From: Novosphingobium sp. 9
Lineage (GTDB): Bacteria; Pseudomonadota; Alphaproteobacteria; Sphingomonadales; Sphingomonadaceae
Length of the DNA: 64,000 bases
NCBI RefSeq assembly: GCF_025340265.1
Contig: NZ_CP022708.1
Location: forward strand, 581,501 to 645,500
Direction of reading: 5' to 3'
Below are positions 47,123-64,000 of this stretch, piece by piece; within the stretch, counting starts at the first letter, position 1; each line of letters opens with the position of its first letter. The position numbers were made by a program, and so were the translations under genes. The notes beneath the pieces are model-generated. The model had not been told where the DNA came from, made no database searches, and worked only from the letters and a program-made list of their open reading frames with translations.

Positions 47123-47466
47123 GCGATGCGTTCCGACTTGGTTGTGATGGCTATTGGTGATCTGGCCTTGAACATGGCGCCTGTGCTCTCCCGCTTCCCT
47201 TTTCATGGGCTTGCATGAACTCAATACTATGCGCTCGAAATTTTGAAAATCTATTGCTTCAATCGTCATCGATCCAAATTGCTGATGACATTGATGATAG
47301 ATTTTTCGGATTTGATCGGATCAAAACAATCAATTTCTGAAATCCTGCGACTATGGTCTAGCACAAGCATCGATGGTGATGGCGCTGCGGCGTACATCGC
47401 TCAACGACAAGCGCAGCGGACCGATCGGCCACATGAAGGGCCGCGGCCGAATTGGGAGATTGGGAT
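47123..47466. promoter_or_regulatory. Divergent control region of the catabolic island
   Basis: 344 bases, AT-richer than its surroundings, between the two divergent operons (Gfo/Idh/MocA and TonB-dependent receptor). A perfect 7-bp inverted repeat with a one-base centre, TTTGATC-G-GATCAAA, occurs at 47311-47325 and is a candidate operator. Both promoters should lie here. No open frame with coding character was found. Confidence 0.5.
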
Positions 47467-49800: not shown

Positions 49801-49819
49801 GGTCAGGGGGCCAGGCATC

Positions 49820-51871
49820 ATGATCGACAGGCGGGAACAGCGACGGATCGCAGGGCAGCATGTCCCGGCGCGGATGCTGGCTCCGCTTGCCGTCATGGTG
49901 TCGATGGCCCTGATGACGGCAGGGACGGGCTGGGCGGATGCGCCGGGCCAGTCTTACCGGCAGCCCGAGATTGCCTCGCATGGTGTACCGGTATTGACCG
50001 TGGATGGCCTGCGCTTCCGCGATCTGAACCGGAACGGTCGTCTCGACCGATACGAGGACTGGCGGCTGTCGCCAAAAGTGCGCGCTCAGGATCTCCTTGC
50101 GCGCATGACGCTGGAGGAAAAGGCCGGGCAGATGGTTCTGCCGATCGCCTTTGCCGATGCGCCGTTCGGTCAACCGGCGCATGGATACGATCCGGCGCAG
50201 GTGCGGAGGCTGGCGCTGGAAAGCCATGTCACGGCGTTCAGTTCGATGCTGACGCTTGCGCCCGCCGATCTCGCCCGCGCCGCCAATGCGGTGCAGGACG
50301 TGGCCGAACAGGGGCGCCTCGGCATCCCGGCAACGCTCGCCACCGATCCGCGCCATGGCTATCACAAGACCGTGGGCGCCAGTGTCGCCACGGCAGGCTT
50401 CAGCCAGTGGCCCGATCCCACCGGGCTCGGTGCCATCGGCGATCCTGCGCTGGTGTATCGTTTCGCCGATATTGTTCGGCGCGACTATCGCGCGGTCGGC
50501 TTCACCATCTCGCTGGGGCCGCAGGCCGACCTTGCCACCGAGCCGCGCTGGCCGCGTATCGACGGCACTTTCGGAGAAGATCCGGCAAGTGTCGGCCCGC
50601 TGGTGGCGGCCTATGTCGAGGGGGCGCAGGGTAGCCGGTACGGTGTGACGCCGGACGGTATCGCTGCCGTCGTCAAGCACTGGGTCGGCTATGGCGCGGC
50701 GCAGGACGGCTGGGACTCGCACAACTATTACGGTCGCTTTTCCGCGCTGCGAACGCAGGCACTGCCGCTGCACCTCAAGCCCTTCGCGGCAGCCTTCGCA
50801 GTCCAACCGGCAGCGGTGATGCCCAGCTATTCGGTGTTCGCGAAGCTGACTATCGATGGCAAGCCTGCGGGACCGACCGGGGCCGCCTTCAGCGCGCCGA
50901 TGATCCATGATCTGCTGCGCGGGCGTTATCACTATCAGGGCATCGTCCTGTCCGACTGGGCAGTGACGGCGGATTGCACGGCGGTATGCCGGGATGGTGT
51001 TCCAGCCGGGCAGCGCCCCGGTTTCGAGGGGATCGCCATGCCCTGGGGCGTGGAAGGGCTGACCCGTCCGCAGCGCTATGCCCGTGCGATCAACGCTGGG
51101 GTCGACCAGTTCGGCGGCGAGAGCGATCCCGCGCCGATCGTCGCTGCGGTCAGGGCCGGGCTGGTGTCGCAGGCCCGGATCGACGAGGCGGTGCTGCGGA
51201 TACTTACCCAGACGTTCCGCCTCGGGCTGTTCGAGCATCCGTTCGTGTCGCCCGAAGCCGCAGCGCGCGATGTGGGGGCGGCAGCGGATCGCGAAGCGGG
51301 GTTGACGGCGCAGGCTCAGGCGATGGTGGTGCTGAAGAGCGCCAGGGCCATTCCGTTTGCGCGCGGTGCGCGCGTGTATCTGCGCGGGGTAGATCCGCAA
51401 GCGGCACGCACCGCCGGGTTCACGGTGGTCGCCGCGCCGGAAAAAGCCGACTTCGCGATTGTCAGGATGAGCGCGCCGCATCAGAATCTGCATCGCGGTT
51501 ATTTCTTCGGGGCGATGCAGCACGAAGGTTCGCTGGCGTTTCCGGCCTCCGATCCGGACCTCGTTTGGCTGCGCGCGCATGCGGGCAAGCTGCCGGTCAT
51601 CGTCGATGTCTATCTGGATCGTCCGGCGGTCCTGACCCCGCTGGTGTCGCTCTCGACCGCGCTTGTGGTCGACTTCGGGGCCTGCGACGAGGCGCTTTTC
51701 GCGGCGCTTGCAGGCCGCGTGCCGCCGCAAGGACGTTTGCCTTTCGAACTGCCGCGCAGCGAGGCGGCAGTCGAGGCACAGGCGAGCGATCTTCCTGCAG
51801 ATAGTCACAACCCTCTATTCCCGATACATTTTCGCAGTCTTGCACTGCCCCGCACGCAACCGGAGACCTGA
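49820..51871 (+). CDS. Glycoside hydrolase family 3 beta-glucosidase-like protein, exported
   Basis: 683 residues. A signal peptide with a long start (MIDRREQRR ...) ends near GWADAPG. The catalytic nucleophile Asp is in YQGIVLSDWAVTADC, the usual GH3 SDW motif, after GFTISLGPQADLATEPRW and KHWVGYGAAQDGWDSHNYYGRF, which form the sugar-binding site. It should cleave beta-glucosides of plant compounds in the periplasm. The stop overlaps the next start (TGATG), so it is coupled to the TIM-barrel gene. Length is close to the short GH3 form without a fibronectin domain. Confidence 0.92.
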   Translation: MIDRREQRRIAGQHVPARMLAPLAVMVSMALMTAGTGWADAPGQSYRQPEIASHGVPVLTVDGLRFRDLNRNGRLDRYEDWRLSPKVRAQDLLARMTLEEKAGQMVLPIAFADAPFGQPAHGYDPAQVRRLALESHVTAFSSMLTLAPADLARAANAVQDVAEQGRLGIPATLATDPRHGYHKTVGASVATAGFSQWPDPTGLGAIGDPALVYRFADIVRRDYRAVGFTISLGPQADLATEPRWPRIDGTFGEDPASVGPLVAAYVEGAQGSRYGVTPDGIAAVVKHWVGYGAAQDGWDSHNYYGRFSALRTQALPLHLKPFAAAFAVQPAAVMPSYSVFAKLTIDGKPAGPTGAAFSAPMIHDLLRGRYHYQGIVLSDWAVTADCTAVCRDGVPAGQRPGFEGIAMPWGVEGLTRPQRYARAINAGVDQFGGESDPAPIVAAVRAGLVSQARIDEAVLRILTQTFRLGLFEHPFVSPEAAARDVGAAADREAGLTAQAQAMVVLKSARAIPFARGARVYLRGVDPQAARTAGFTVVAAPEKADFAIVRMSAPHQNLHRGYFFGAMQHEGSLAFPASDPDLVWLRAHAGKLPVIVDVYLDRPAVLTPLVSLSTALVVDFGACDEALFAALAGRVPPQGRLPFELPRSEAAVEAQASDLPADSHNPLFPIHFRSLALPRTQPET

Positions 51872-52899
51872 TGCCCGTGTCCAAAATCCAGCGAGGCGTC
51901 AGCCTCTACAGTTTTCAGGAAGAGATGTTCCTGGGCAAGATGTCCGTGGAGGACGTCATCGCCTTTGCCGCAACGCTCGGTGCGCAGGGAATCGAGATTC
52001 TGCCTGAGCAGAACATGCCCACGTTCCCGTATGTCAGCGATGCGCAGATCGGCGAATGGCGCGACATGCTGGACCGGCATGGGGCGCACTTCACCTGCTA
52101 TGACATGTTCCTCGACACCAAGCTGCGTAAGGGCGAGCTTCTGTCGGACGAGGAGCAGGTGGAAAGCATCAAGCGCGATCTTACGCTGTGCAACCGCCTC
52201 GGCATCCGCAACATGCGCGTGCTGATCTTCGTGCGTCCGGATATCCTCGAAAAATGCGTGCCTTATGCTGAGAAGATGGATGTTCACATGGGTGTGGAGG
52301 TCCATGCGCCCTGGCATCTGGAGCACGCCTGGATACTGCGCACGATCGACGTCGCCGATCGCCTGGCCACGAAGCACCTCGGTATCCTGCCGGACATGGG
52401 CGTGTTCATGAAGCACTATCCGCCCGCCTTCCGCGCCCGTTTCGAGCGCCAGGGCGCGCGGCCCGAGATCACCCAGTTCATCGTCGATCAGCATGAACAG
52501 AAGATCATGTGCGAATACACGATCTACGAAGTCGCGGTGAAGATGGGCGGCAACAAGGCGGAAATCGCGATGGCGGAAACCCTGCGCCATGCACCCTACG
52601 CCAATCCGAAGCGTCTCAAGGACTACGCGCCGTACTTCCGCCATATCCAGGCCAAGTTCTACGAAATGAACGAGGATTATACCGATCCCGCGATTGCTTA
52701 CGATGAAGTGATCCCTGAACTGGTGAAGTGCGGCTGGGAAGGCACGCTTTCTAGCGAATACGAAGGCAATCGCTGGATTCAGGATGTGATGGAAGTCGAC
52801 AGTCGCGAGCAGGTCCGTCGCCAGCATGAGATGTTCAAGCGCCTGATCGCCAAGGCCGAAGCAGAACTGGAGGTCGCGAGATGTTCGACAAGTATCTGA
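51871..52899 (+). CDS. TIM-barrel sugar isomerase-like protein, candidate C-glycoside deglycosidase large subunit
   Basis: 342 residues. The metal-site residues of the xylose-isomerase-like fold are visible: GVEVHAPWH (Glu, His), ILPDMGVFMKHY (Asp) and LSSEYEGNR (Glu). Its length and its adjacency to DUF6379 (start overlaps its 3' end by 19 bases) match the two-subunit C-glycoside deglycosidases (for example DgpC/DgpB and DfgA/DfgB), which split the C-C bond of a 3-keto C-glucoside. That assignment is from family and context, not from activity. It has no signal peptide. Confidence 0.8.
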   Translation: MPVSKIQRGVSLYSFQEEMFLGKMSVEDVIAFAATLGAQGIEILPEQNMPTFPYVSDAQIGEWRDMLDRHGAHFTCYDMFLDTKLRKGELLSDEEQVESIKRDLTLCNRLGIRNMRVLIFVRPDILEKCVPYAEKMDVHMGVEVHAPWHLEHAWILRTIDVADRLATKHLGILPDMGVFMKHYPPAFRARFERQGARPEITQFIVDQHEQKIMCEYTIYEVAVKMGGNKAEIAMAETLRHAPYANPKRLKDYAPYFRHIQAKFYEMNEDYTDPAIAYDEVIPELVKCGWEGTLSSEYEGNRWIQDVMEVDSREQVRRQHEMFKRLIAKAEAELEVARCSTSI

Positions 52900-53287
52900 T
52901 TGACGAGACTTCGCTTCGTAACGTCGGTCCGGTCGAGGCACCGACCGGCTTCGCCTTCGAGACCAAGCTGGGCTATTATCGTGGCCTCGGACTTTCGATG
53001 ATCGAGGAGCTGGCCGTCTCGGTGGATGGCGTGGCGATCGATCGCGGTGGCGTGACCTTCGACGAGTTCTGCGGTGAAGGTGGGCCGGGGCCGCTGACGC
53101 TGGACGAAATGGAAACTGCCTATGACAGACGCTGGCCGTTTGGGGCGGCCGCGACGATCAGCGTTGCCTATCCGGGGGGTATCCGGCGGGAGAGCATGAG
53201 CTGTCGCTGCTGCAACGTCTGCGCGTATCTTATCTTCCGTTCCCCTCGATCAATACCGATGCCAAGCGGGTTACGCTCGAAAAGTGA
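52881..53287 (+). CDS. DUF6379 protein, candidate C-glycoside deglycosidase small subunit, apparent frameshift
   Basis: About 135 residues in the repaired form. The frame starts MFDKYLIDETSLRNVGPVEAP and shifts at a run of six G (53174-53179); one more G gives YPGGYPAGEHELSLLQRLRV and a natural end ALKRVTLEK at 53287 (stop TGA 53285). Without it the frame runs to 53345 through an unrelated Cys-rich stretch. DUF6379 is the small beta-rich partner of the TIM-barrel large subunit in C-glycoside deglycosidases. The start overlaps the large-subunit gene, and the pair is the best marker of C-glycoside use in this window. Confidence 0.8.
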
Positions 53288-53355
53288 CAGCCATGGTGGT
53301 GCAACGTCATCCGTGCGCAGATCGATGTTGCACCATTTTTCCTAAGGGCAGGATG

Positions 53356-54408
53356 TTAGCTCGACACTGGAACCGCCCTTGTCCGCACAAGAACGGATAG
53401 CGTGTACATCAGCCACAAGGCTGCGCCGACGGCGAAGCCTGCCAGGGCATATCGGGCAAACCCGGCAAGGATCAGGACGCATGCCAGCGCCGCAATGAAA
53501 TCGCGCATCGTCAGCCAGATAAGGCACTGCATCAGGAACGAGGGCTTGCGCCGTGCATGATGCTTGATCACGTCGAAGGTGAACGGTCCACCTTGCCGGG
53601 CTGACCGCAGCCCGATGGCAAGAAGGCCTGTTGCGAGCATGGCGAGACCGGAGGCGCCGGCGATGGCTGCCGCTCCTTCGCCTGCAAGCGCGAGATTGGC
53701 CGTGACGCCGCCGATGAAGGCCAGGTTAGTTACGGCGTCGATCAGGCTGTCGATCATGGCGCCTTTCGCGGATGTGCGGAAGGTCGCGCGGGCAATTTCG
53801 CCATCCACGCCATCGAAGATCGACGCTGCCTGGAACAGCAGCGCGCCTGCGATCAGGCCGGAAGGTCCGCCGAGCAAAAGGCTGGCGGCCATCATGATCC
53901 CGAGAAGCGCTGTGCCCACGCTTGCATGATTTGGGGTAATACCAGCAATAGCCAGTAACCGGCCCGAGATCGCCTGCGAGATCGGACGGTTGAAATAGCG
54001 TGAGACCACGCCGTCACCGGGTTTGGTCGTGGCGGCCAGTATGCTTCGGCCGGCGAGCCGAAGCGCGCGAAGTTGCTGCTTCTCGTCCGCATCGCGCAAG
54101 ATCTGCTCTGGAGAAAGCGATGCGGCGTGTAGGACAAGGGTTGTGCCATTGTGAACAGGCGCGGTGGCGTCCGGCAGGTTCGGTGCCTCGGCCGCTACGC
54201 TGCAAGTGATACCGGGCGTCAGCCTTGCCCATTCGGCGCGGCAGAAGCTGCCGGGTTCCCATAAGTCCGGCGTAATGAAAATGCAGGACGTGAAAGGCGC
54301 ATCGGTTTCACGAACGGCTTGCAACAGCGCGCGGGCGGCGGCAGGTATTCCTGCCACGAGAACGGCGGCTGATCTGGCCGAGGGAAAGGCGATCACCAGA
54401 CTAGACAC
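53356..54408 (-). CDS. CDP-alcohol phosphatidyltransferase with a degenerate N-terminal nucleotidyltransferase-like region
   Basis: 350 residues from GTG 54408 (GGAG ten bases upstream). The C-terminal membrane domain has the full family motif: DGVDGEIAR, then G eight residues later, then D-x3-D (GAMIDSLIDAV). The N-terminal ~140 residues look like the shrunken nucleotidyltransferase part of DIPP-synthase fusions but lack the AAG-x-G-[ST]-R binding loop, so it should not charge CTP. The linker SRYFNRPISQAIS is typical of the DIPP-synthase-like branch. It probably uses CDP-inositol from the enzyme at 58134. It diverges from the second CDP-alcohol gene over 120 bases. Confidence 0.85.
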   Translation of the reverse strand: MSSLVIAFPSARSAAVLVAGIPAAARALLQAVRETDAPFTSCIFITPDLWEPGSFCRAEWARLTPGITCSVAAEAPNLPDATAPVHNGTTLVLHAASLSPEQILRDADEKQQLRALRLAGRSILAATTKPGDGVVSRYFNRPISQAISGRLLAIAGITPNHASVGTALLGIMMAASLLLGGPSGLIAGALLFQAASIFDGVDGEIARATFRTSAKGAMIDSLIDAVTNLAFIGGVTANLALAGEGAAAIAGASGLAMLATGLLAIGLRSARQGGPFTFDVIKHHARRKPSFLMQCLIWLTMRDFIAALACVLILAGFARYALAGFAVGAALWLMYTLSVLVRTRAVPVSS

Positions 54409-54528
54409 GATGTGAGGACTCCGAATTTCCGGTGAAGCGCTTTTCGCGGCAGAGCGGATGCGTATAAGTCGCCTGAGCGGGATGGCCAAGGCTGTTGGGC
54501 AGAACACGTTGACAAGTAGGCAAGAACG

Positions 54529-55446
54529 ATGAGCGTACAACGTCGGCACGCTGGCACGGCATCGCCGGTATCGCCATCGCGCCCGCGCGAATTGCAGGAC
54601 GGATTGAACCGTTGGCTGTACCATCCGCTGGCATGGCGTCTGGCGATATCCCTGTCGGCCACGCCGATCACGCCGAATGCGGTTTCCGTGGCCGGAGCGG
54701 CCATCGTTGTCATGGCAGGTTTGTCCTATATCGGCCTGAGCTGGCCGTTCGGCGCACTTCTGGGGCTGCTGCTGCATATGACCTGGCATGTGGTCGATGG
54801 GGCGGACGGCGATCTGGCCAGACTTACCGGCCGCTCCAGCCCGCGCGGTGAGTTGGTCGATGGCATTTGCGATTATGCCAGCCATCTGGTTCTGTATCTG
54901 TTGCTGGGCTTCCAGTTGCAGCACTTCATCGGCGTGCTGGCGTGGTTGCCGACGATTGCGGCCGGAGGGAGCCGGATCGTTCAGGCAAACCGCTATGAAG
55001 CGCAACGTCGCGAATATCAGTGGTGGGCTTACGGCGTGCCGTGGCTGCGCCATTCCCGGCAGGACGGCGCGGGCACAACGCCAACCGGAATGGTCGGAGG
55101 ATTGAGCAGGGCTTATCTGGCGCTGGCAGACGCCACGGCGCCGAAAGAGCGTTCGCTCGATACGGTGCTGGCCGAAGTCGGCACCGATCCGGCTAGCTTG
55201 TCGCGGGCGAGGCAGATCGTGCGGGCCAATGCCGCAACGCTGCTGCCACGCTCGCCGCTTCTGGGGGCAAACTATCGCACGATTGGCCTGGGGCTTTCGA
55301 TGCTCGCGGGCTCGCCCTTGTGGTATTTCCTCTACGAAGCCGTGATCCTCAACATCGTTCTTGCATGGTCGTGGGTGCGGGTTCCCGTTGCCGAGCGTGC
55401 GGTCGCGACAAGCATTGTTCAGGCATTCGCCAGCACGCGTCGATAG
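54529..55446 (+). CDS. Second CDP-alcohol phosphatidyltransferase family protein
   Basis: 305 residues, with five to six membrane helices. The catalytic motif is complete: DGADGDLAR, then G eight residues on, then D-x3-D (GELVDGICD). A soluble C-terminal tail with a helical region (SLDTVLAEVGTDPASLSRARQIVR) is longer than in most members. The enzyme joins a CDP-activated alcohol to an acceptor alcohol. The acceptor or donor is unknown, and an inositol-linked role is inferred from neighbours. Its 3' end overlaps the convergent glycosyltransferase gene by 28 bases. Confidence 0.88.
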   Translation: MSVQRRHAGTASPVSPSRPRELQDGLNRWLYHPLAWRLAISLSATPITPNAVSVAGAAIVVMAGLSYIGLSWPFGALLGLLLHMTWHVVDGADGDLARLTGRSSPRGELVDGICDYASHLVLYLLLGFQLQHFIGVLAWLPTIAAGGSRIVQANRYEAQRREYQWWAYGVPWLRHSRQDGAGTTPTGMVGGLSRAYLALADATAPKERSLDTVLAEVGTDPASLSRARQIVRANAATLLPRSPLLGANYRTIGLGLSMLAGSPLWYFLYEAVILNIVLAWSWVRVPVAERAVATSIVQAFASTRR

Positions 55447-56546
55447 ACCTCCAGATGCCCTGCGGCGAACTGCTGCCAGTTGAGCCGGGCAGCACGCGCA
55501 AAGCCACGTTGCCTCATAGTGTCTGCCAGGCGGGCATCCGTAAGAGTTCGGCGCAGTTGGATGCCCAGCGCCGAAGGATCATATGGCGAAGCTGTCAGAG
55601 CTGCGCCCCCGGTCACTTCGGGCATGGCCGACACGTCGCTGGTCACGACGGGACAGCCGCAGGCCATCGCTTCGACCAGCGGATTGCCGAAGCCTTCGCA
55701 GAACGAGGGATGCAGCAGGGCTTGGGCATTGCAGTAGAGGGCAATGAGGTCGTCCATCGCGACCCCTTGCAGCAGGCGCACGCGGCCTTGCAGTCCGAGC
55801 TCGTTTGCGAGGACAAGGAGGGCCTGCGCGCGTCGTCCCATGCGCTGGACGAGGATCAGGTCGATATCGGGCATGTCCGCGCAGGCCAACGCGAAAGCGC
55901 GGATAGCGCCTTCATGGTTCTTGTAGGGCGCATACTGGCCGACCGTCAGGACATAGCGCCGGGATGGCGGCAGTCCGAGCGATGCCAGTCTTTCGTATGA
56001 TCCGGGGGTTGGGCGAAAGCGCGCAGAGACACCTGACGGCGTGATGAACGTGCGGGCGGCGGCAGAAGGTGAAATCCGCGCGATCTCTGCTGCGCTGGCG
56101 GCACTGACGGTGGTGATGGCTGCCGCTGACTTCAATGCGCGACGGATGCCATGGCTATAAAAGGCGCGATCGATCAGGCCTCGCGTGCCAGATCGGCACC
56201 ACGCCGGATTTGTCAGCCACATGACGTCGTGAATGGTTGTCACGCAGGGCATCGCCAGGCGTGCAGGCATGATGTTGGCTGGAGCATGGAACAGATCGAT
56301 CCGGGAAAGATCGACGGCCTGCGGGAGCCACCACATGGTCGACGGGCCATTGGCTGCCTGTGGGACGATGATTTCGGTGACGTTGTCTGCCGTGCAGAGA
56401 GGCGTTCGTCGCCTGGGGTTGCGCAGGAGAACGAAATGCGTGTCCGGCGCCAGTGCCGGGACGAAGTCGATCAGCCCCTGGACTACCTCGCCGATGCCGC
56501 TGGGGCGATCCGCAATATAGCGGGAGTCGATGCACACGGTATTCAT
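55419..56546 (-). CDS. Family 4 (GT-B) glycosyltransferase
   Basis: 375 residues. The start at 56546 (MNTVCIDSRYIADRPSGIGEV) has AAGG seven bases upstream. The E-x7-E motif of retaining GT4 enzymes is in CEGFGNPLVEAMACGCPVV, and the donor-binding VLTVGQYAPYKNHEG block is in the middle. It transfers a sugar to a growing glycan at the cytoplasmic face. Context (kps genes, inositol module) makes it part of capsule or surface-polysaccharide assembly. Its donor and acceptor are unknown. Confidence 0.9.
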   Translation of the reverse strand: MNTVCIDSRYIADRPSGIGEVVQGLIDFVPALAPDTHFVLLRNPRRRTPLCTADNVTEIIVPQAANGPSTMWWLPQAVDLSRIDLFHAPANIMPARLAMPCVTTIHDVMWLTNPAWCRSGTRGLIDRAFYSHGIRRALKSAAAITTVSAASAAEIARISPSAAARTFITPSGVSARFRPTPGSYERLASLGLPPSRRYVLTVGQYAPYKNHEGAIRAFALACADMPDIDLILVQRMGRRAQALLVLANELGLQGRVRLLQGVAMDDLIALYCNAQALLHPSFCEGFGNPLVEAMACGCPVVTSDVSAMPEVTGGAALTASPYDPSALGIQLRRTLTDARLADTMRQRGFARAARLNWQQFAAGHLEVYRRVLANA

Positions 56547-57036
56547 CAGGCGGCCTTCGAAAGGGGCGCGCATAGGCGCGTATGGGCATTCCGACTAGGA
56601 TTAAAATTAATTCATCGCGATACGATAATAAGGATAATTGCGTATCAATTTTATATGATTTTATTGAGATGTTCGCCAAAATTTCTCAATCTAAATTCTT
56701 GTTAGAATTTGAAATAAATCTGAAACACGGATGAGATCGTCTCAGGCAATTGCTTTTGGACGGCGCAGATGGCTATCTGTTCCAGCATGTGAAGGCATAA
56801 TGATCTCGGTTCGTCGCATTTTGTTTGATTCCATGGCGCTTCCTGTTCCCTCATGTGCAACTGTCTGTGTGGATGAGGGTTTCGCTCGCGAAGTCCTTTG
56901 CGAGCAGGCGCAGGGCAGGAATGATGGTTGAATTCAGGCTTTAAGTGATGTGAACCAAGGTTCGTTTTGCACTGACATCTGCGGTGATGGTGCGATTCAG
57001 GAATTAGTTGCGATCTGATTTGGAGTAAAGTCTGAA
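56547..57036. promoter_or_regulatory. AT-rich divergent control region before the inositol/capsule operon
   Basis: 490 bases with long A/T-rich stretches, unlike the GC-rich surroundings (for example around 56600-56720). No gene is seen; one short open frame at 56731 lacks coding character. It should hold the promoters of the glycosyltransferase (minus) and the ino1 operon (plus). The low GC suggests binding of an H-NS/MucR-like silencer or recent transfer. Confidence 0.5.
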
Positions 57037-58137
57037 ATGACAGTAATAAAGGTCGCCGTAGTAGGCTTGGGTAATTGCGCGAGTTCGCTTATACAGGGGG
57101 TTGCTTATTATGCTGCAACCCAATCCAGCCGTGGCGTTATCCATGAAAAGATCGGCGGGTATGGCGTGTCCGACGTTCAATTCGTGATGGGTGTGGATGT
57201 CGATGACCGCAAGGTCGGCCTTGATATTGCTGATGCCATTTTTTCTGCTCCCAATAATACCACCGTGTTCCATCGCGATGTCCCTGCGACCGGTGTCAAG
57301 GTGATGAAGGGCGTGGTGCTTGACGGTGTCGCTCGCCACATGACGGGTGTGGGAGAGCGTGGCTTCATCGTTTCGCAGGACGCTGAAGCGTCCAAGGACG
57401 ATATCGTTGCTGCCCTGCGTGCCTCGCGCGCGGATATTCTCGTCAATTTCCTCCCGGTCGGATCGCAGAAGGCGACCGAGTTCTACATGGAATGCGCGCT
57501 TGAGGCAGGCGTTGGCGTGGTCAATTGCATTCCCGTGTTCATCGCCAGTGATCCGATGTGGGAAGCGCGTTTCCGTGAAAAGCGCCTGCCGATCGTCGGC
57601 GATGACATCAAGGCTCAGGTCGGCGCGACCATCGTCCATCGCACGCTGTCCAGCCTGTTTACCGTTCGTGGCGTCACCACCGAACGGACGTATCAGCTCA
57701 ACACCGGCGGCAACACCGACTTCATGAACATGCTCGATCGCGAACGCCTTTCGAGCAAGAAGGAATCGAAGACCGAAGCGGTTCAGGCCGCTCTGGCACA
57801 ACGCCTCGCGGAGGAGAACATTCTCATCGGCCCGTCCGAATATGTGCCGTGGCAGAAGGATAACAAGATATGTTTCCTTCGCATGGAAGGCGTGCAGTGG
57901 GGCGATGTGCCGATGAACCTCGAGCTGCGCCTTTCCGTCGAAGACAGCCCCAATGCGGCGGCTTGCGTGATGGATGCGATCCGTTGCTGCAAGGTCGCGC
58001 TGGAGCGAGGGGAAAGCGGTGCACTGATCCCGCCATCGGCGAGTTTCTGCAAGCACCCGCCGCAGCAGTTCCCTGACGAAACTGCGATGCGCATGCTCGA
58101 CAGCTACCTTGACGGGCAGATGCGGGCGGCCGGATGA
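57037..58137 (+). CDS. ino1: Inositol-3-phosphate synthase, actinobacterial/archaeal type
   Basis: 366 residues. The NAD site IKVAVVGLGNCASSLIQGVAYY starts the protein; LPIVGDDIKAQVGATIVHRTL, YQLNTGGNTDFMNM and KTEAVQAAL are the conserved substrate-binding blocks, and DSPNAAACVMDAIRC follows. It converts glucose 6-phosphate to inositol 3-phosphate (1L-myo-inositol 1-phosphate). The start has TTGGAG nine to eleven bases upstream. The stop overlaps the start of the next gene (ATGA), so it is coupled to the cytidylyltransferase. The first codons are richer in AT than the later part. Confidence 0.95.
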   Translation: MTVIKVAVVGLGNCASSLIQGVAYYAATQSSRGVIHEKIGGYGVSDVQFVMGVDVDDRKVGLDIADAIFSAPNNTTVFHRDVPATGVKVMKGVVLDGVARHMTGVGERGFIVSQDAEASKDDIVAALRASRADILVNFLPVGSQKATEFYMECALEAGVGVVNCIPVFIASDPMWEARFREKRLPIVGDDIKAQVGATIVHRTLSSLFTVRGVTTERTYQLNTGGNTDFMNMLDRERLSSKKESKTEAVQAALAQRLAEENILIGPSEYVPWQKDNKICFLRMEGVQWGDVPMNLELRLSVEDSPNAAACVMDAIRCCKVALERGESGALIPPSASFCKHPPQQFPDETAMRMLDSYLDGQMRAAG

Positions 58138-59005
58138 GCCTCGCCGCTGTCACCGCGTCGGCGCGGTGCGGCCGGTCCAAAGCGCCCAAGGACGCGTTGA
58201 TTCTGGCTGCCGGTTACGGCAGCCGGTTGCGTCAGCTTGGACCGTCCAAACCGCTCACGCCGATCGCGGGTATCGCTCTTATCGAATTGGGCATTCGGCA
58301 GGCCGCATCGGCTGGTGTTGAGCGCGTCGTCGTGGTGACGGGGCACGAAGCACCCCGTGTCGAGGCGGCGCTGCCGGACATTGCGGCTCGCGCGGGTGTT
58401 CGAGCCGATGTTCGGCGCGTCGGCGACTGGTCGCAGCCGAACGGCTGGTCCGTGCTGGCCGGTGCCGAGGCGATCGAGGGCGATTATCTGCTGATGATGG
58501 CCGATCATATCTTCTCGGGCACCATTCTGGCGCGCCTTGCCGATCAGGGGGAAGCGATCGGGGCGTGACGTTGGCGATCGACCGCCGGACGGATCACGAA
58601 CTTGTCGATCCCGAAGATGCCACTTGGGTGCGGACCGGCAAGGATAGCGCAATTCGCGAGATCGGCAAGACGATCGCGGTGTTCGATGCCGTCGATTGCG
58701 GCGCGTTCCTGGCTACTCCTGAACTGGCACAGGCCATTCGCGAGGCGATCGCAGCGGGGCAGGGCGGTAGCCTTTCCGACGGTATGCAGGTTCTGGCAAA
58801 TCGCGGGCGGGCCGCGACCATGGACATCGGCAGTGCCTGGTGGATCGATGTAGACGATGCCCGGATGCATGCTCTGGCCGAGCGGGTGGTGCATCGCGAG
58901 TTGCCGGAAATTTACGAGACCGCGCCTCAGTCGAGTGCCGTGCCGCCTGTCGGAGGACGCAAAGCGGTCGCGTCATCGTCGATGCCGTGGTCGGCGGATA
59001 TTTGA
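58134..59005 (+). CDS. CTP:inositol-1-phosphate cytidylyltransferase-like nucleotidyltransferase, apparent frameshift
   Basis: About 290 residues in repaired form. The nucleotide-binding loop is ALILAAGYGSRLRQLGPSKPL and a metal-binding Asp follows in LLMMADHIFSG. The frame breaks at a run of four G (58558-58561): adding one gives EAIGGVTLAIDRRTDHELVD and continuation to 59005, matching one continuous NTP-transferase domain. The alternative is a second gene starting GTG 58565 with TGA overlap, which would split a single fold. By position after ino1 it would make CDP-inositol. The end of the open frame (SSMPWSADI) may be off by a few residues. Confidence 0.75.
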
Positions 59006-59013
59006 GGCGGGCG

Positions 59014-60240
59014 ATGATAGCCGAACGCCCCTTGTTGCTGGATGTCACGCGACTGGTCGCGCGCAGCTGGTCGCGGCGCCTGTCGACGGGGATCGACCGT
59101 GTCGCCTATGCCTATCTGCGCCGGTTTGCGGCCCGTGCTCAGGCCGTGGTCCAGCACCGGGGCTTCGTCCGTGTGCTGGATCGCCGCCATTCCGATGATC
59201 TTTTCGACCTCCTGCTCGGACGCGATGAAAGCTTTCGCCGGCAGGTGACGGCTCTCACCGCGCGCGCGCTGATGACAGGCAGTCCTGCTGCAGCCCTGCG
59301 TGGTGCGACATATCTGAACGTCAATCACACCGATTTCGATCTGGAAAGCCACCAGCGGTGGATCCGGATGGCGGGTCTGCGCAGCGCTTACTTGTTGCAC
59401 GACCTTATTCCCATTACCCACGGCGAGCATTGCAGTGCGCATGCGGTCCGGCGCCATCGCGGGCGCGTGCTCGGCGCACTTCAGCATGGGTCCGGGATCG
59501 TGGTCAGCACGGCTGCCGTCGCGCAGGATCTGAAGGCTTTTGCTCGTTCCCAGCGATTGCCGGTGCCGCCGCTGCTGGTTGCACCCATTGCCGGAAACGC
59601 GATGACTCCCCGAGTCCCCAATGGAGAGCCCGGCGGTTATTTCGTGTGTCTGGGCACGATCGAGAGCCGTAAGAACCATCGCCTGCTCCTTGATGTGTGG
59701 AGTGGTCTCGTCGCCCGGTTGGGCAGTGCGGCGCCGCGACTGGTGATCGTAGGTCAGTGGGGCTATGGATCGGAGCCCGTGCGCAGGCGTCTGGATAGTG
59801 ATCTGGCGTTGCGTGGGCATGTGACCATGTACCAGCGGCATGACGATGCCGGGGTGGCTCGGTTGCTGGCAGGCGCCCGCGCAGTGGTGATGCCAACCCT
59901 GGCCGAAGGTTATGGCTTGCCCATGGTCGAGGCGTTGCACGCAGGCGTTCCGGTGATCGCCAGCGATCTGCCGTGCCTGCGTGAAGTGGGACAAGGTATT
60001 CCGACATTTTTGCCGACAGACAATGCCGCTGTCTGGCAGGCCGCCATTGCCCGTTTTGCGCCCGGTGCGCCGGAGTTCGACCGACAGCGGGCGGCGATGC
60101 ATCGGTTCCGGGCGCCGACGTGGGACCGACATTTCGAACATCTGGAGGAATGGCTTCCCCAGTTGCATCCGATGTCGGAATTCCGCGCTTCGACTGGCTC
60201 CCCGGACGCATTGCGTCCTGCGCTCGTTCCGGCGGAGTGA
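59014..60240 (+). CDS. GT4-type glycosyltransferase with N-terminal extension
   Basis: 408 residues. The start MIAERPLLLDVTRLV at 59014 has GAGG eight bases upstream. The core includes FVCLGTIESRKNHRLLLDVW (donor site) and the E-x7-E of LAEGYGLPMVEALHAGVPV. The first 100 residues are rich in Arg/Leu and not recognised. It is in the plus-strand series with ino1, the cytidylyltransferase and kps genes, and so probably works in capsule synthesis. Spacing to the previous stop is eight bases. Confidence 0.88.
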   Translation: MIAERPLLLDVTRLVARSWSRRLSTGIDRVAYAYLRRFAARAQAVVQHRGFVRVLDRRHSDDLFDLLLGRDESFRRQVTALTARALMTGSPAAALRGATYLNVNHTDFDLESHQRWIRMAGLRSAYLLHDLIPITHGEHCSAHAVRRHRGRVLGALQHGSGIVVSTAAVAQDLKAFARSQRLPVPPLLVAPIAGNAMTPRVPNGEPGGYFVCLGTIESRKNHRLLLDVWSGLVARLGSAAPRLVIVGQWGYGSEPVRRRLDSDLALRGHVTMYQRHDDAGVARLLAGARAVVMPTLAEGYGLPMVEALHAGVPVIASDLPCLREVGQGIPTFLPTDNAAVWQAAIARFAPGAPEFDRQRAAMHRFRAPTWDRHFEHLEEWLPQLHPMSEFRASTGSPDALRPALVPAE

Positions 60241-60247
60241 GCGCCGG

Positions 60248-61441
60248 ATGAACACTTTCGTTTCTGCGCAAACGCGCAAACCTGACGGTGATGACAACGA
60301 TCACCCGCAACCCGGCTTGACGATGAAGGATACCGTGCTGGACCGTCTTATTTTGCGCCTCAAGTCTCTCGGCCCGCTCTTTCTGATTACCGTTGTTATC
60401 CCGACGGTTGTGGCCATCCTGTACTTCGGCATCTTCGCCAGCGACGTCTACGTCTCGGAATCCCGGTTTGTGGTGCGTGGCTCCAACAAGAGCAGCATGT
60501 CTCCGCTAGGGCTGATGCTGAGCGGCGGCGGCCTGAGCGGGGCGAGCGAGGAAGGCAACGCGGTCGAGGAATATCTCAGCTCGCGTCTGGCGCTCAAGGA
60601 AGCGGATAGCGATGGGCTGCTGACGCGGGCCTACACGGCGCCCTCGATTTTCTGGTTCGATCGTTTCGGTGCCGGTGGCAAGCGTGATCGCGAACACTTC
60701 TACGACTATTTCCTGAACCATGTGAAGGTCGAGGACGAGACGACGACGCAGGTTCTCTATCTGACGGTGCGGGCCTACGGGGCCAAGCAGGCGCATGATA
60801 TCAACGAGCGGCTGCTCGAGCGCTCGGAAGCACTGGTGAACCGCATGTCGGATCGTGCGCGTCAGGACGCGGTGGCCTCGGCCCAGGCCGAAGTGAACCA
60901 GGCACAGGACCGTGCGCGCGGCGCGGCCAGGGCGCTGGCGGACTATCGCGATCGTGAAGGCGTGATCGATCCCGAAAAGGAAGCGACCGTGCGCCTGCAG
61001 ATGATCTCCAAGCTGCAGGATGAACTGATCTCGGTGCAGACGCAGCTCAGCCAGCTGACCAGTTACACGCCGCAGGCCTCGCAGATCCCCTATCTGCGGA
61101 CGCAGGCGAACAAATTGCAGCAGGAGATCGATGCCCAGACTGCAGGTATCGCAGGGGGACGCAAGTCGCTCTCGTCGGCTTCGGCGCGCTATCAGGAGCT
61201 GGAACTCGATACCGAGATTGCCGGCAAGCAGCTGGCGACGGCGCTGGCATCTTTGCAGGATGCGCGGACCGATGCAGAGCGCAAGCGCGCCTATGTGCAG
61301 CGTATCGCCGATCCGAGTACACCTGATTATGCCATGGAGCCCCGGCGGATCGGCGGCATCTTTGCCACGCTGCTGCTGGGCCTGATCGCCTGGGGCGTGC
61401 TTTCGACCCTGCTCATCGGCATTCGCGAGCATCGTGACTGA
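60248..61441 (+). CDS. kpsE: KpsE-like capsule polysaccharide export protein
   Basis: 397 residues. One transmembrane helix near the N-terminus (PLFLITVVIPTVVAILYFGIF) and one at the C-terminus (GGIFATLLLGLIAWGVLSTLL) flank a long periplasmic coiled-coil region (about residues 190-340). The pattern DVYVSESRFVVRG after the first helix is typical of the KpsE/RkpR/Wza-partner export family. It forms an inner-membrane periplasmic adaptor of group 2/3 capsule export with KpsM and KpsT. The start at 60248 is seven bases after the previous stop. The stop shares a base with the kpsM start. Confidence 0.93.
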   Translation: MNTFVSAQTRKPDGDDNDHPQPGLTMKDTVLDRLILRLKSLGPLFLITVVIPTVVAILYFGIFASDVYVSESRFVVRGSNKSSMSPLGLMLSGGGLSGASEEGNAVEEYLSSRLALKEADSDGLLTRAYTAPSIFWFDRFGAGGKRDREHFYDYFLNHVKVEDETTTQVLYLTVRAYGAKQAHDINERLLERSEALVNRMSDRARQDAVASAQAEVNQAQDRARGAARALADYRDREGVIDPEKEATVRLQMISKLQDELISVQTQLSQLTSYTPQASQIPYLRTQANKLQQEIDAQTAGIAGGRKSLSSASARYQELELDTEIAGKQLATALASLQDARTDAERKRAYVQRIADPSTPDYAMEPRRIGGIFATLLLGLIAWGVLSTLLIGIREHRD

Positions 61442-62274
61442 TGGCCGACACCATGGAGCAGTCTTTGCCGGCATCGCCCGACAGCCAGACCAGTCCGCCG
61501 CTTTCGCAGAGCCTGCGTATCCAGCGGCGGGTGCTGGGGGCGTTGCTGATCCGCGAGATGCTGACGCGCTATGGGCGGCATAACATCGGCTTTCTCTGGC
61601 TGTTCGTGGAGCCGATGCTTTATACGCTGGGCGTCACGGCGCTCTGGACAGCGACGAAATCGGTCCACGGCAGCGACCTTCCGATCGTGGCCTTTGCCCT
61701 GACCGGCTATTCGAGCGTGTTGTTGTGGCGCAATATGCCCGGACGATGCATCGGTGCGCTGTGGAGCAACCTGCCGCTGTTGTACCACCGCAATATCCGG
61801 GTGTTCGACATCTATCTTGCGCGCGTCTTGCTGGAGTTCGGCGGGGCGACGATCTCGTTCGCCACGCTAAGTGTGTTCTTCATCGCGATCGGCTGGCTCA
61901 AGCCGCCTGAGAACGTGCTGGAAGTGGCCGGCGGATGGCTGTTGATCGCGTGGTTCGGCGGGGCGCTGGCGATCACGCTGGGCGCTCTGTCGCATGAGAG
62001 TGAACTCGTCGACAAGTTGTGGCATCCGTTCTCGTACCTGTTGTTTCCGATGTCCGGCGCGGCGTTCATGGTCGATGCCTTGCCCAAGGTCGCACAGGAT
62101 TACGTTCTGTATGTGCCAATGGTCCATGGGACTGAAATCGTACGCGAAGGTTATTTCGGGATGCGTGCCCATGCGCACTACGATCTGGCCTATGTCATCC
62201 CTTTCAGTCTGGTGCTGACGCTGACCGGGCTGCTGGCTGTGCGCTGGGTGTCGGGCAGGGTGGTTCCCGAATGA
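61441..62274 (+). CDS. kpsM: ABC-2 capsule export permease, KpsM family
   Basis: 277 residues. Six predicted membrane helices with the family core SLRIQRRVLGALLIREMLTRYGRHNIGFLWLFVEPML near the start. It forms the channel through which a lipid-anchored polysaccharide passes, driven by KpsT. The start overlaps kpsE by one base and the stop overlaps kpsT by four bases (ATGA), so the three are translationally coupled. The conserved amphipathic start before the first helix is present. Export substrate is presumably the capsule glycan of this locus. Confidence 0.95.
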   Translation: MADTMEQSLPASPDSQTSPPLSQSLRIQRRVLGALLIREMLTRYGRHNIGFLWLFVEPMLYTLGVTALWTATKSVHGSDLPIVAFALTGYSSVLLWRNMPGRCIGALWSNLPLLYHRNIRVFDIYLARVLLEFGGATISFATLSVFFIAIGWLKPPENVLEVAGGWLLIAWFGGALAITLGALSHESELVDKLWHPFSYLLFPMSGAAFMVDALPKVAQDYVLYVPMVHGTEIVREGYFGMRAHAHYDLAYVIPFSLVLTLTGLLAVRWVSGRVVPE

Positions 62275-63791
62275 TCCGCCTTACCGATGTGCGCAAGGTG
62301 TACCGGACCCGGTTCGGACAGAACGTTGTGCTCGATAATATCGGCTTCGAAATGCACAAGGGCGAGCGCCTTGGCGTGCTGGGCCGGAATGGTGCCGGCA
62401 AGTCGACGATGCTGCGCCTGATCAGTGGCGCCGAGAAGCCTACGGCCGGGCGGATCGAGCGGACGATGTCGGTGTCCTGGCCGCTGGCTTTCGGCGGCGC
62501 CTTCCAGACGATGCTGACGGGCGTCGACAACATTCGCTTTATCAGCCACATCTATGCGCAGGACTTTGAACGCAATCTGGCATTCGTGCAGGATTTTTCG
62601 GAGCTGGGCGCCTATCTGCGCGAACCGGTGCGGACCTATTCCTCCGGTATGCGTGCGCGTCTTGCCTTTGCCATTTCGATGATCATCGAGTTCGACTGTT
62701 TCCTGATCGACGAAATCGGCGCGGTGGGCGATGCGCGGTTCCACGACCGCTGCAATCAGGAATTGTTTGGCAAGCGGGGCGACCGCGCGATGATCATCAT
62801 CTCGCACGATGCCGCTTACGTGCGTGACCATTGCAACCGCTTTGCCGTGCTGCATGGCGGACGGCTGGACCTATATGACGACTTCGAGGACGCCTACAGC
62901 GATTTTCGCGAAAAGATCGGCCTGTCCAACCGGGCGCCGCGTCCTGCGCCCGCAGGAATGTCTCCGGCAGACATGGAGGCCGTCACCAGCACGGACCCGG
63001 TCAAGAGCCTTGCCATCACGCCCAATCGCAATGCGATGATCGAAGTGGCGCAGCATCGCGCGCTGCAGGACGATCGTTTCCGCGCGCTGGTCATGGAAGG
63101 CGACTGGCGCCGCGACGCCAAGGCGTGGGAAGAAGCGGACGAGCGTTATGCCGCGGGCCTGACGCTCCACCCCTACCAACGTTCCTACTGGGTGCAACTC
63201 GGCCACGTCAGCAAGGAGCGCGATCTGTTCGAACGGGCGGAGATCGCCTATCGCACCGCCTGCGCGCTGGGAGAGCCGGTGCAGGATGTCGAAGAGCATC
63301 TTGCCTTCGTTGTCGCGCGTCAGGGCATGGATCTCGATGCCTGTCCGCCCGGCCGCTATCGCAAGGGCGATGTGCCAAGGCAGGCACCTGGTCGGCCTGA
63401 CCTCGAACTGTTTGCCCGGATAGCGTGGCATCTCTCGCCGATCGGCGACGAAGATGCTGCGCGTCTATTGCGGGATCATCCCACGCTCGATCATCTGCTG
63501 GCGGCGATGGTGCGAGACCCGCGTTTCCAGCAGGCCAACGGACCTGTGATGGAGGAACGACCCGATACTGGCGAGGCTGCCGTTCGTGATCCGGCCGATG
63601 TCGACTGGATTCGCGCGATCTGCGTGATTGCGCTGGCGACAACAGATGCAGAACGCATGGCGCAGGTCGCGGCAGGCATTTCCGGCATGCAGGACGCCTG
63701 GCGGCGGCTGACGGCGGCCGGTGCCTTCGAGGACTGGCCTTTCACCCAGATGGCGGTGCGACAGACAAGATTGCCGGAACCCCTTACATGA
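62271..63791 (+). CDS. kpsT: KpsT-like ABC ATPase with a C-terminal helical repeat extension
   Basis: 506 residues. The first ~220 are a normal KpsT: Walker A GRNGAGKSTMLRLI, signature YSSGMRARLAFAI, Walker B CFLIDEIGAVGD. The family is usually about 220-250 residues, so ~270 residues are extra. The extra part holds TPR-like helices (for example EEADERYAAGLTLHPYQRSYWVQLGHV and ERAEIAYRTACALGEP) and a final domain without recognised family. It overlaps the start of the following glycosyltransferase by four bases. The extension may bind the glycan or a partner enzyme. Confidence 0.9.
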   Translation: MIRLTDVRKVYRTRFGQNVVLDNIGFEMHKGERLGVLGRNGAGKSTMLRLISGAEKPTAGRIERTMSVSWPLAFGGAFQTMLTGVDNIRFISHIYAQDFERNLAFVQDFSELGAYLREPVRTYSSGMRARLAFAISMIIEFDCFLIDEIGAVGDARFHDRCNQELFGKRGDRAMIIISHDAAYVRDHCNRFAVLHGGRLDLYDDFEDAYSDFREKIGLSNRAPRPAPAGMSPADMEAVTSTDPVKSLAITPNRNAMIEVAQHRALQDDRFRALVMEGDWRRDAKAWEEADERYAAGLTLHPYQRSYWVQLGHVSKERDLFERAEIAYRTACALGEPVQDVEEHLAFVVARQGMDLDACPPGRYRKGDVPRQAPGRPDLELFARIAWHLSPIGDEDAARLLRDHPTLDHLLAAMVRDPRFQQANGPVMEERPDTGEAAVRDPADVDWIRAICVIALATTDAERMAQVAAGISGMQDAWRRLTAAGAFEDWPFTQMAVRQTRLPEPLT

Positions 63792-64000
63792 CTGCAACTA
63801 ACCGGACCATTCTGATCGACGGCTACAACCTGAGCCTTCAGAAGGGGACAGGCGTGGCCACATATGCCCGCAATCTGAGCAAGGAGATCGGCGCGATCGG
63901 CCATGACGTGGCCGTGCTGTACGGCAGCCGCTCCAGCATGTCGCGCGATGCGCTGCTGCGTGAGGTGTCGTTCTTCGATACCGATGCGCACAGGCAGCCG
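63788..64000 (+). CDS. Glycosyltransferase, 3' end cut by the window
   Basis: Starts with ATG at 63788 overlapping the kpsT stop (ATGA). The visible 71 residues open TILIDGYNLSLQKGTGVATY, which resembles the N-terminus of GT4-type enzymes (the G-x-G-x-A-TY loop that binds the acceptor). The rest is outside the window. Coupling to kpsT makes it a part of the capsule operon. Confidence 0.8.
   Translation, partial: MTATNRTILIDGYNLSLQKGTGVATYARNLSKEIGAIGHDVAVLYGSRSSMSRDALLREVSFFDTDAHRQP

What the first reader, a model, noticed from the sequence alone, without database searches (positions are those of the whole stretch)
53356..61441. Inositol-phosphate module embedded in a capsule export locus
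Myo-inositol-phosphate synthase, a cytidylyltransferase of the CTP:inositol-1-phosphate type and two CDP-alcohol phosphatidyltransferases sit among KpsE/M/T and three glycosyltransferases. In archaea the same two activities (CDP-inositol formation and transfer) make di-myo-inositol phosphate; in Bacteroides inositol goes into lipids. In a capsule locus the product could be a phosphoinositol-decorated capsule, a phosphatidylinositol-like lipid anchor, or an osmolyte. No phosphatase is seen in this window.
Basis: partly seen in the sequence, partly recalled or inferred. Interest (0 to 1): 0.87.

Follow-up and report, generated by a model that had tools for sequence, protein, structure and literature searches.

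The report
Inositol genes replacing a capsule anchor
Genes that make activated inositol sit inside a capsule-export cluster of sphingomonad bacteria that lack the usual enzymes for fixing a capsule to a lipid, so these bacteria may anchor a surface sugar chain on an inositol lipid.

Summary
The genes form one conserved cluster: CAP1 and CAP2 (CDP-alcohol phosphotransferases), GT1, inositol-phosphate synthase (MIPS), inositol-1-phosphate cytidylyltransferase (NT), GT2, KpsE, KpsM, KpsT, GT3, KpsD; the last two run past the window. NT and GT3 are frameshifted in this assembly. Most sampled genus genomes carry CAP2, and where looked at it sits with MIPS and NT outside capsule loci, so the core product is not capsule-specific. 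The capsule version recurs in Novosphingobium, Croceibacterium, Aurantiacibacter, Erythrobacter and unnamed genera. It goes with absence of the Kdo-linker enzymes KpsC/KpsS (PF05159): in the genus 0 of 8 genomes with CAP1 near KpsE have PF05159, against 62 of 69 other strong-KpsE genomes; outside the genus 0 of 9 have a strong match, against 63 of 72. Best reading: CDP-inositol is used to make an inositol phospholipid on which a Kps-exported glycan is built, an anchor unlike Kdo-phosphatidylglycerol or the Vi diacyl-HexNAc. The chemistry is inferred, and kinship is not corrected for. Published lead: Novosphingobium acidiphilum makes a PI-dihydroceramide-like lipid with no known genes (PMC9246714); whether it has this module stayed unresolved.

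The parts
53356..54408 (-). CAP1: CDP-alcohol phosphotransferase with a reduced cytidylyltransferase-like N-terminal domain; closest to IPCT-DIPPS (4mnd) and AF2299
54529..55446 (+). CAP2: CDP-alcohol phosphotransferase, the member conserved with MIPS and NT across the genus
55419..56573 (-). GT1: GT4-family glycosyltransferase; best PDB match a D-inositol 3-phosphate glycosyltransferase, a generic family resemblance
   Evidence: PF00534; 7qsg E 7.4e-18; below all NCBIfam cut-offs
57037..58137 (+). MIPS: myo-inositol-1-phosphate (inositol-3-phosphate) synthase; only PF01658 match in the genome
   Evidence: 1gr0 E 4.7e-113
58134..58568 (+). NT, first part: CTP:inositol-1-phosphate cytidylyltransferase-like, holds the nucleotide loop
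   Evidence: PF12804 and NF041135; 80% identical to the intact NT of a relative
58565..59005 (+). NT, second part, in another frame; the gene is frameshifted in this assembly
   Evidence: NF041135; 71% identical to the intact NT of a relative
59014..60240 (+). GT2: GT4-family glycosyltransferase
   Evidence: PF13692 and PF00534
60248..61441 (+). KpsE/CtrB/BexC-type inner-membrane export protein
   Evidence: TIGR01010 325.7 bits, E 3.6e-97, below its cut-off of 437.5
61441..62274 (+). KpsM-type ABC-2 permease
   Evidence: PF01061; NF050053 98.4 bits, below its cut-off
62271..63791 (+). KpsT-type ATPase with a long C-terminal extension that has no Pfam match
   Evidence: PF00005; polysaccharide-export ATPases lead the NCBIfam list
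63788..64000 (+). Start of GT3 (GT4 family), which runs off the window and is frameshifted here; KpsD follows outside
   Evidence: ORFs of L002, intact relative, NCBIfam of the relative and of KpsD, coordinates

Best explanation
The cluster makes and exports a surface glycan built on an inositol phospholipid instead of the usual Kdo-phosphatidylglycerol anchor. Steps: MIPS turns glucose-6-phosphate into inositol-1-phosphate; NT and CTP give CDP-inositol; a CDP-alcohol phosphotransferase moves phosphoinositol onto a membrane lipid (diacylglycerol or ceramide), giving phosphatidylinositol or inositol-phosphoceramide; GT1 starts a glycan on the inositol and GT2 and GT3 extend it; KpsM, KpsT, KpsE and KpsD export it. 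CAP1, which travels with GT1-GT2-Kps even where MIPS, NT and CAP2 lie elsewhere, is either the capsule-specific anchor enzyme or adds a further phosphoinositol. Shown here: gene content, conserved clustering, intact motifs, association with absence of KpsC/KpsS. Inferred: every chemical step, the lipid acceptor, which phosphotransferase does which transfer, and attachment of the glycan to the lipid.
For: PF05159 is absent from the own genome. Of 77 genus genomes with a strong KpsE (TIGR01010 E <= 1e-50, lists typed by hand) 62 have PF05159; the 8 with CAP1 near KpsE have none (p 3e-7, or 2.7e-6 without the borderline G066). Outside the genus 0 of 9 CAP1-linked genomes have a strong match against 63 of 72 others (p 1.9e-7). 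The loci of those 9 hold CAP1, GT1, MIPS, NT, GT2, KpsE, KpsM and KpsT in 9 of 9 and CAP2 in 8 of 9. G082 and G145 have CAP1-GT1-GT2-KpsE-M-T without MIPS, NT and CAP2 in the stretch, with CAP2 elsewhere in the genome. CAP motifs are intact in 20 of 20 CAP1 and 16 of 16 CAP2 copies found among 22 loci.
Against: Associations are not corrected for kinship: the capsule-type MIPS form one clade. G313 has a weak PF05159 match (4.6e-11; p 6e-6 if counted). G066's KpsE is divergent (31%) and over 9 kb from CAP1; G156, which has PF05159, has a CAP1 about 11.5 kb from a divergent KpsE with other genes between. Seven genus and seven other strong-KpsE genomes lack PF05159 without CAP1 in the stretch seen and mostly have divergent or cut Kps loci, so lack of PF05159 is not special to this cluster. 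CAP1 and CAP2 models are closest to enzymes with soluble substrates, and PMC4634129 (passages) ties lipid acceptors to extra helices. GT1's likeness to inositol glycosyltransferases is generic. NT and GT3 are frameshifted in this assembly.
Confidence: 0.4

Rival explanations
1. The module makes a free membrane lipid (phosphatidylinositol or inositol-phosphoceramide) that is not attached to the glycan; it shares an envelope gene island with an exporter whose anchor is something else.
For: MIPS, NT and CAP2 lie together in 20 of 20 fetched relative loci and only one of these is capsule-linked; 7 of 80 named loci are of the capsule type. N. acidiphilum makes a PI-dihydroceramide-like lipid (PMC9246714 section 10). 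The own genome encodes a serine palmitoyltransferase.
Against: Does not explain why CAP1-GT1-GT2 travels with KpsEMT in G082 and G145 without MIPS, NT and CAP2 in the stretch, nor the association with missing KpsC/KpsS.
Confidence: 0.27
2. Phosphoinositol is part of the glycan itself, as backbone or side group, added from CDP-inositol by CAP1 or CAP2; the anchor is unrelated.
For: CAP1's nearest solved relatives use soluble CDP-alcohol donors (PMC4634129 passages). CAP1 is tied to the glycosyltransferases.
Against: Does not by itself explain missing KpsC/KpsS; the core module without a capsule locus is more common.
Confidence: 0.2
3. Di-myo-inositol phosphate osmolyte pathway that happens to lie beside capsule genes.
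For: CAP1 and NT match the IPCT-DIPPS family.
Against: No phosphatase family among the cluster's proteins; CAP1 reaches 90 bits of the 580 needed for NF041135; conserved linkage to an exporter and glycosyltransferases.
Confidence: 0.03
4. NT activates another phospho-alcohol (phosphoglycerate, phosphocholine or the like), and MIPS serves a separate purpose.
For: CpgD of Caulobacter, related to IPCT, makes CDP-glycerate (PMC12275187, abstract and part 1 of 4).
Against: MIPS and NT lie together in 20 of 20 relative loci and both CAPs resemble inositol-handling enzymes best.
Confidence: 0.1

Closest known systems
ABC-transporter-dependent (KpsMTED) capsules with a Kdo-phosphatidylglycerol terminus
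   Same: KpsM, KpsT, KpsE and a KpsD-type exporter
   Different: No KpsC/KpsS (PF05159) in the genome; an inositol module instead
Vi antigen capsule (VexABCD, VexE)
   Same: KpsMTED-like export without KpsC/KpsS; another lipid anchor is known there (PMC12220298 and PMC9597891, passages)
   Different: Inositol module and two CDP-alcohol phosphotransferases; no VexE-like acyltransferase family among the cluster's proteins, genome not searched for it
IPCT-DIPPS pathway of di-myo-inositol phosphate (Archaeoglobus 4mnd, NF041135)
   Same: MIPS, inositol-1-phosphate cytidylyltransferase and DIPPS-like transferase
   Different: Cytidylyltransferase and transferase are separate genes, CAP1's own cytidylyltransferase domain is reduced, no phosphatase in the cluster, far below the equivalog cut-off
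Alternative inositol-lipid cluster of Bacteroides vulgatus and Prevotella (PMC9246714)
   Same: MIPS, NTP transferase and CDP-alcohol phosphotransferase, with a proposed CDP-inositol route
   Different: No HAD hydrolase family hit among the cluster's proteins; linked to capsule export; direct homology to the BVU genes was not tested
Phosphatidylinositol-based glycans of mycobacteria
   Same: The idea of glycans built on an inositol phospholipid; MIPS of the same type; GT1 resembles inositol glycosyltransferases
   Different: Mycobacteria use CDP-DAG and inositol phosphate (PMC4634129 passages); CAP1 and CAP2 are below the PIPSynth cut-off

Membership tests
ABC-transporter-dependent (Kps) capsule system | ABC exporter KpsM and KpsT | tested here: met
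   PF01061 and PF00005, NF050053 match below cut-off
ABC-transporter-dependent (Kps) capsule system | Periplasmic adaptor KpsE and outer-membrane exporter KpsD | tested here: met
   TIGR01010 E 3.6e-97, below cut-off; PF02563 and SLBB in the KpsD-type gene outside the window
ABC-transporter-dependent (Kps) capsule system | KpsC and KpsS Kdo-linker enzymes (PF05159) | tested here: not met
   No match in the own genome; the same search finds it in 69 of 149 genus genomes
ABC-transporter-dependent (Kps) capsule system | Exported polysaccharide on the cell surface | not testable with these tools
   Needs glycan chemistry
IPCT-DIPPS (di-myo-inositol phosphate) | Equivalog score of NF041135 (580 bits) | tested here: not met
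   CAP1 90.2 bits, NT parts 50.8 and 30.6
IPCT-DIPPS (di-myo-inositol phosphate) | DIPPS-like CDP-alcohol phosphotransferase fold | tested here: met
IPCT-DIPPS (di-myo-inositol phosphate) | Phosphatase for the DIPP intermediate | tested here: inconclusive
   None among the cluster's proteins; the rest of the genome was not searched
CDP-DAG-dependent PIP synthase pathway | PIP synthase equivalog (NF045883 170 bits, NF052561 350 bits) | tested here: not met
   CAP1 37.6 and 22 bits; CAP2 29.1 bits and no NF052561 match
B. vulgatus/Prevotella alternative inositol-lipid cluster | MIPS, NTP transferase and CDP-alcohol phosphotransferase together | tested here: met
B. vulgatus/Prevotella alternative inositol-lipid cluster | HAD hydrolase | tested here: not met
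   No such family among the cluster's proteins; genome not searched
Vi capsule | VexE acyltransferase and diacyl-HexNAc anchor | not tested
   No such family among the cluster's proteins, but the genome was not searched and the anchor needs chemistry

The most novel reading that the evidence does not exclude
A further lipid-anchor class for ABC-exported bacterial glycans: a capsule built on phosphatidylinositol or inositol-phosphoceramide made by a CDP-inositol route, a Gram-negative counterpart of the PI-based glycans of mycobacteria and the GPI anchors of eukaryotes. The same core module would also be the unknown inositol-sphingolipid pathway of Novosphingobium.
Probability: 0.36. Interest if true: 0.88.

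Novelty: new variant of a known kind. Interest (0 to 1): 0.72.

Why it matters
A 2025 review describes a Kdo and phosphatidylglycerol terminus as conserved in ABC-dependent capsules, with Vi as the exception; phosphatidylinositol occurs nowhere in the text held (PMC12220298, passages). A further anchor type would change how such loci are read and gives a simple genomic marker: CAP1-GT1-GT2-KpsEMT without KpsC/KpsS. Separately, the genus-wide module makes a published loose end directly testable: which genes make the PI-dihydroceramide-like lipid of N. acidiphilum (PMC9246714).

Tried and rejected
Osmolyte reading: weak (no phosphatase family in the cluster, low equivalog score, linkage to export). 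CDP-DAG-dependent PIP synthase: not supported by scores. Which of CAP1 and CAP2 has a lipid acceptor: not decided; CAP2's profile also hits CEPT1 at 2.8e-7, but its model is closest to AF2299. Finding N. acidiphilum: the one named-genome scan kept the best 80 of 219 relatives and it was not among them; a MIPS search from N. lentum did not list it among the best 120. Both are inconclusive. Of the 15 other species listed with it in the emended genus (PMC12210278 passage) 9 are in that scan. Plasmid search: of the five MIPS records opened, one (S. parapaucimobilis) has CDP-alcohol phosphotransferase, MIPS and NTP transferase together, one has no annotation, three are other contexts.

Papers: searches listed no paper that I recognised as describing an inositol-linked Kps locus; subscription journals and preprints are not held. 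Seen: PMC9246714, section 10 in full and passages; PMC12275187, abstract, passages and part 1 of 4; PMC4634129, PMC12210278, PMC12583986, PMC11665390, PMC12220298 and PMC9597891, passages; PMC7179689, the term sought was not in the part held; other papers, listings only.

Limits of the counts: a strong KpsE means TIGR01010 E <= 1e-50; lists of genome handles were typed by hand into. Genus KpsE loci reach about 9 kb each side, many cut by contig ends, so CAP1 further off is missed. In one search the PF- label of row L126 (G156b) is an artefact of my label; G156 is PF05159-positive, and its L198 was fetched round its PF05159 genes. The CAP1 tally of 61 includes weak hits on CAP2 and is not used. 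In one search three duplicate loci were dropped before the trees, the loci were not yet in them, and the CAP2 tree's summary was cut from the output. Of the 23 relatives with MIPS, 20 loci were fetched.
Full report
Setting. The window lies on the second contig of a two-contig, 4.39-Mb genome. CAP1 is 67% identical to a protein named for N. clariflavum, and the genome is placed with Novosphingobium-like relatives.

What is there. Left to right: CAP1 (-), CAP2 (+), GT1 (-), MIPS (+), NT (+, split), GT2, KpsE, KpsM, KpsT, and outside the window GT3 (split) and a KpsD/Wza-type gene, then unrelated genes. MIPS is of the actinobacterial Ino1 type (1gr0 E 4.7e-113) and the only PF01658 match in the genome. 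The two NT frames match successive parts of the IPCT domain and of the intact NT of a relative. In 18 of 18 other capsule-type loci with MIPS, NT is found in one piece, one of them with a stop; a pattern for its nucleotide loop matched in 15 of the 18. A third frameshift shows in the neighbouring unrelated gene at 52881-53345. Three indels in about 12 kb, in unrelated genes, favour assembly error over decay; this is not shown.

The core module is wider than the capsule. A CAP2 ortholog (49-100% identical) is in 93 of 149 sampled genus genomes (hand count). MIPS matched in 24 of 41 genomes, the own included. In the 20 relative loci fetched, MIPS, NT and CAP2 lie in the same stretch in 20 of 20, and Kps genes are linked in one, G005. 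Among 80 named loci brought in by CAP2 (the best 80 of 219), MIPS was found in 76 and NT in 67, some contigs being short; 7 also carry GT1, GT2, KpsE, KpsM and KpsT: Sphingomonas sp. IC081, N. clariflavum, Croceibacterium xixiisoli, N. guangzhouense, Novosphingobium sp. PC22D, Aurantiacibacter sp. 219JJ12-13 and Erythrobacter longus. Elsewhere the module sits beside DUF2141, Rpe, heparinase, PurH, NadA, M20 or MFS genes, in some loci beside a weakly Wzx-like gene.

The capsule version and the missing linker. KpsC/KpsS (PF05159) are absent from the own genome but found in 69 of 149 genus genomes. Of 77 genus genomes with a strong KpsE, 62 have PF05159 and 15 do not. I fetched a stretch for each of the 77. 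CAP1 lies near KpsE in 8: five with the whole cluster (G000, G005, G064, G138, G139), two with CAP1-GT1-GT2-KpsE-M-T and no MIPS, NT or CAP2 in the stretch (G082, G145), and G066, where CAP1-GT1-GT2 lies over 9 kb from a divergent KpsE (31%). All 8 lack PF05159. Among the 62 PF05159-positive genomes only G156 has a CAP1 in the stretch, about 11.5 kb from a divergent KpsE with other genes between. Fisher: 0 of 8 against 62 of 69, p 3e-7; without G066 p 2.7e-6; with G156 counted as linked p 2.5e-6. Of the other 7 negatives, G164 has KpsD-GT3-KpsT-M-E at a contig end and G095 a partial KpsE beside a GT2-like gene; five have divergent or no hits.

Replicate outside the genus. In 296 genomes of the order 10 have CAP1 within about 10.5 kb of KpsE, 9 of them outside the genus. 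None of the 9 has a strong PF05159 match (G313 has one at 4.6e-11), against 63 of 72 other strong-KpsE genomes outside the genus (p 1.9e-7; 6e-6 if the weak match counts). Their loci hold CAP1, GT1, MIPS, NT, GT2, KpsE, KpsM, KpsT and a GT3-like gene in 9 of 9, CAP2 in 8 of 9 (not G313) and KpsD in 8 of 9 (not G401); in G399 and G364 the Kps block is turned round. Of the 9 unlinked genomes without PF05159, G389 and G370 turned out to hold MIPS-NT-GT2-KpsE at contig ends; the other seven have no KpsE hit to this query or one of 24-33%. None of this corrects for kinship: in the MIPS tree the 8 capsule-type rows form one clade (95/84) that spans two families by their names, and the CAP1 tree needs three changes of the label.

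Mechanism. KpsC and KpsS put the Kdo linker on phosphatidylglycerol; Vi lacks both and uses a diacyl-HexNAc (PMC12220298, passages). A cluster that keeps KpsMTED-type export, lacks KpsC/KpsS and comes with CDP-inositol enzymes is most simply read as having an inositol-phospholipid anchor. GT1's best solved relative is a D-inositol 3-phosphate glycosyltransferase (7qsg, E 7.4e-18), but GT4 enzymes resemble each other widely. A free inositol lipid, and phosphoinositol inside the glycan, stay open.

A published lead. Heaver et al. 2022 (PMC9246714, section 10 in full and passages) report that N. acidiphilum makes a sphingolipid with PI-dihydroceramide fragmentation despite lacking homologues of either inositol-lipid cluster they know, that S. 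paucimobilis lacks the m/z 241 fragment, and propose a CDP-inositol route for B. vulgatus and Prevotella. The module here is a candidate for the missing genes. The window's genome encodes a serine palmitoyltransferase (2x8u 1.9e-201, 2jg2 2.9e-187). CpgD of Caulobacter, a relative of IPCT, makes CDP-glycerate for a sphingolipid headgroup (PMC12275187), so NT's substrate must be tested.

Verdict. Ordinary parts, unusual combination. The cluster and its association with missing KpsC/KpsS are solid as sequence facts; the anchor reading is a testable inference.

Noticed in passing
window 43693-53345: Genes that look like a C-glycoside catabolism island: MFS, two xylose-isomerase-like proteins, a Gfo/Idh oxidoreductase, TonB receptor, GH3 and a CGDB (C-glycoside deglycosidase beta) gene that is frameshifted near its end.
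   Followed up: partly
window 52881-59005 and L002 12789-14095: Three frameshifts in about 12 kb in unrelated genes (CGDB, NT, GT3), which suggests assembly indels rather than decay.
   Followed up: partly
L127, L128, L129: CAP1-GT1-GT2 capsule-type loci without MIPS, NT and CAP2 in the stretch; in L129 the KpsE is divergent and distant.
   Followed up: partly
L036 4700-13184: In another family of the order the CAP2 and CAP1-like genes lie beside an HpnN-like RND transporter, MIPS, NT and a Wzx-like gene.
   Followed up: no
L119 8055-12687 and L121 6024-11704: On Sphingobium and Paracoccus plasmids a MIPS about 59% identical sits with a zinc-binding dehydrogenase, Gfo/Idh oxidoreductase, TIGR04290 methyltransferase and glycosyltransferases, possibly a cyclitol-containing glycan.
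   Followed up: no
L118 8150-10817: S. parapaucimobilis plasmid: CDP-alcohol phosphotransferase, MIPS and NTP transferase in a row without capsule genes.
   Followed up: no
L007 1276-2451: The genome has another CDP-alcohol phosphotransferase-family protein with a long N-terminal part, away from this locus.
   Followed up: no
L122 7001-8068: S. meliloti pSymB carries a MIPS 52% identical to this one; the record shows no annotation and its role was not examined.
   Followed up: no
window 62271-63791: The KpsT-type ATPase has a C-terminal extension of roughly 290 residues with no Pfam match.
   Followed up: no
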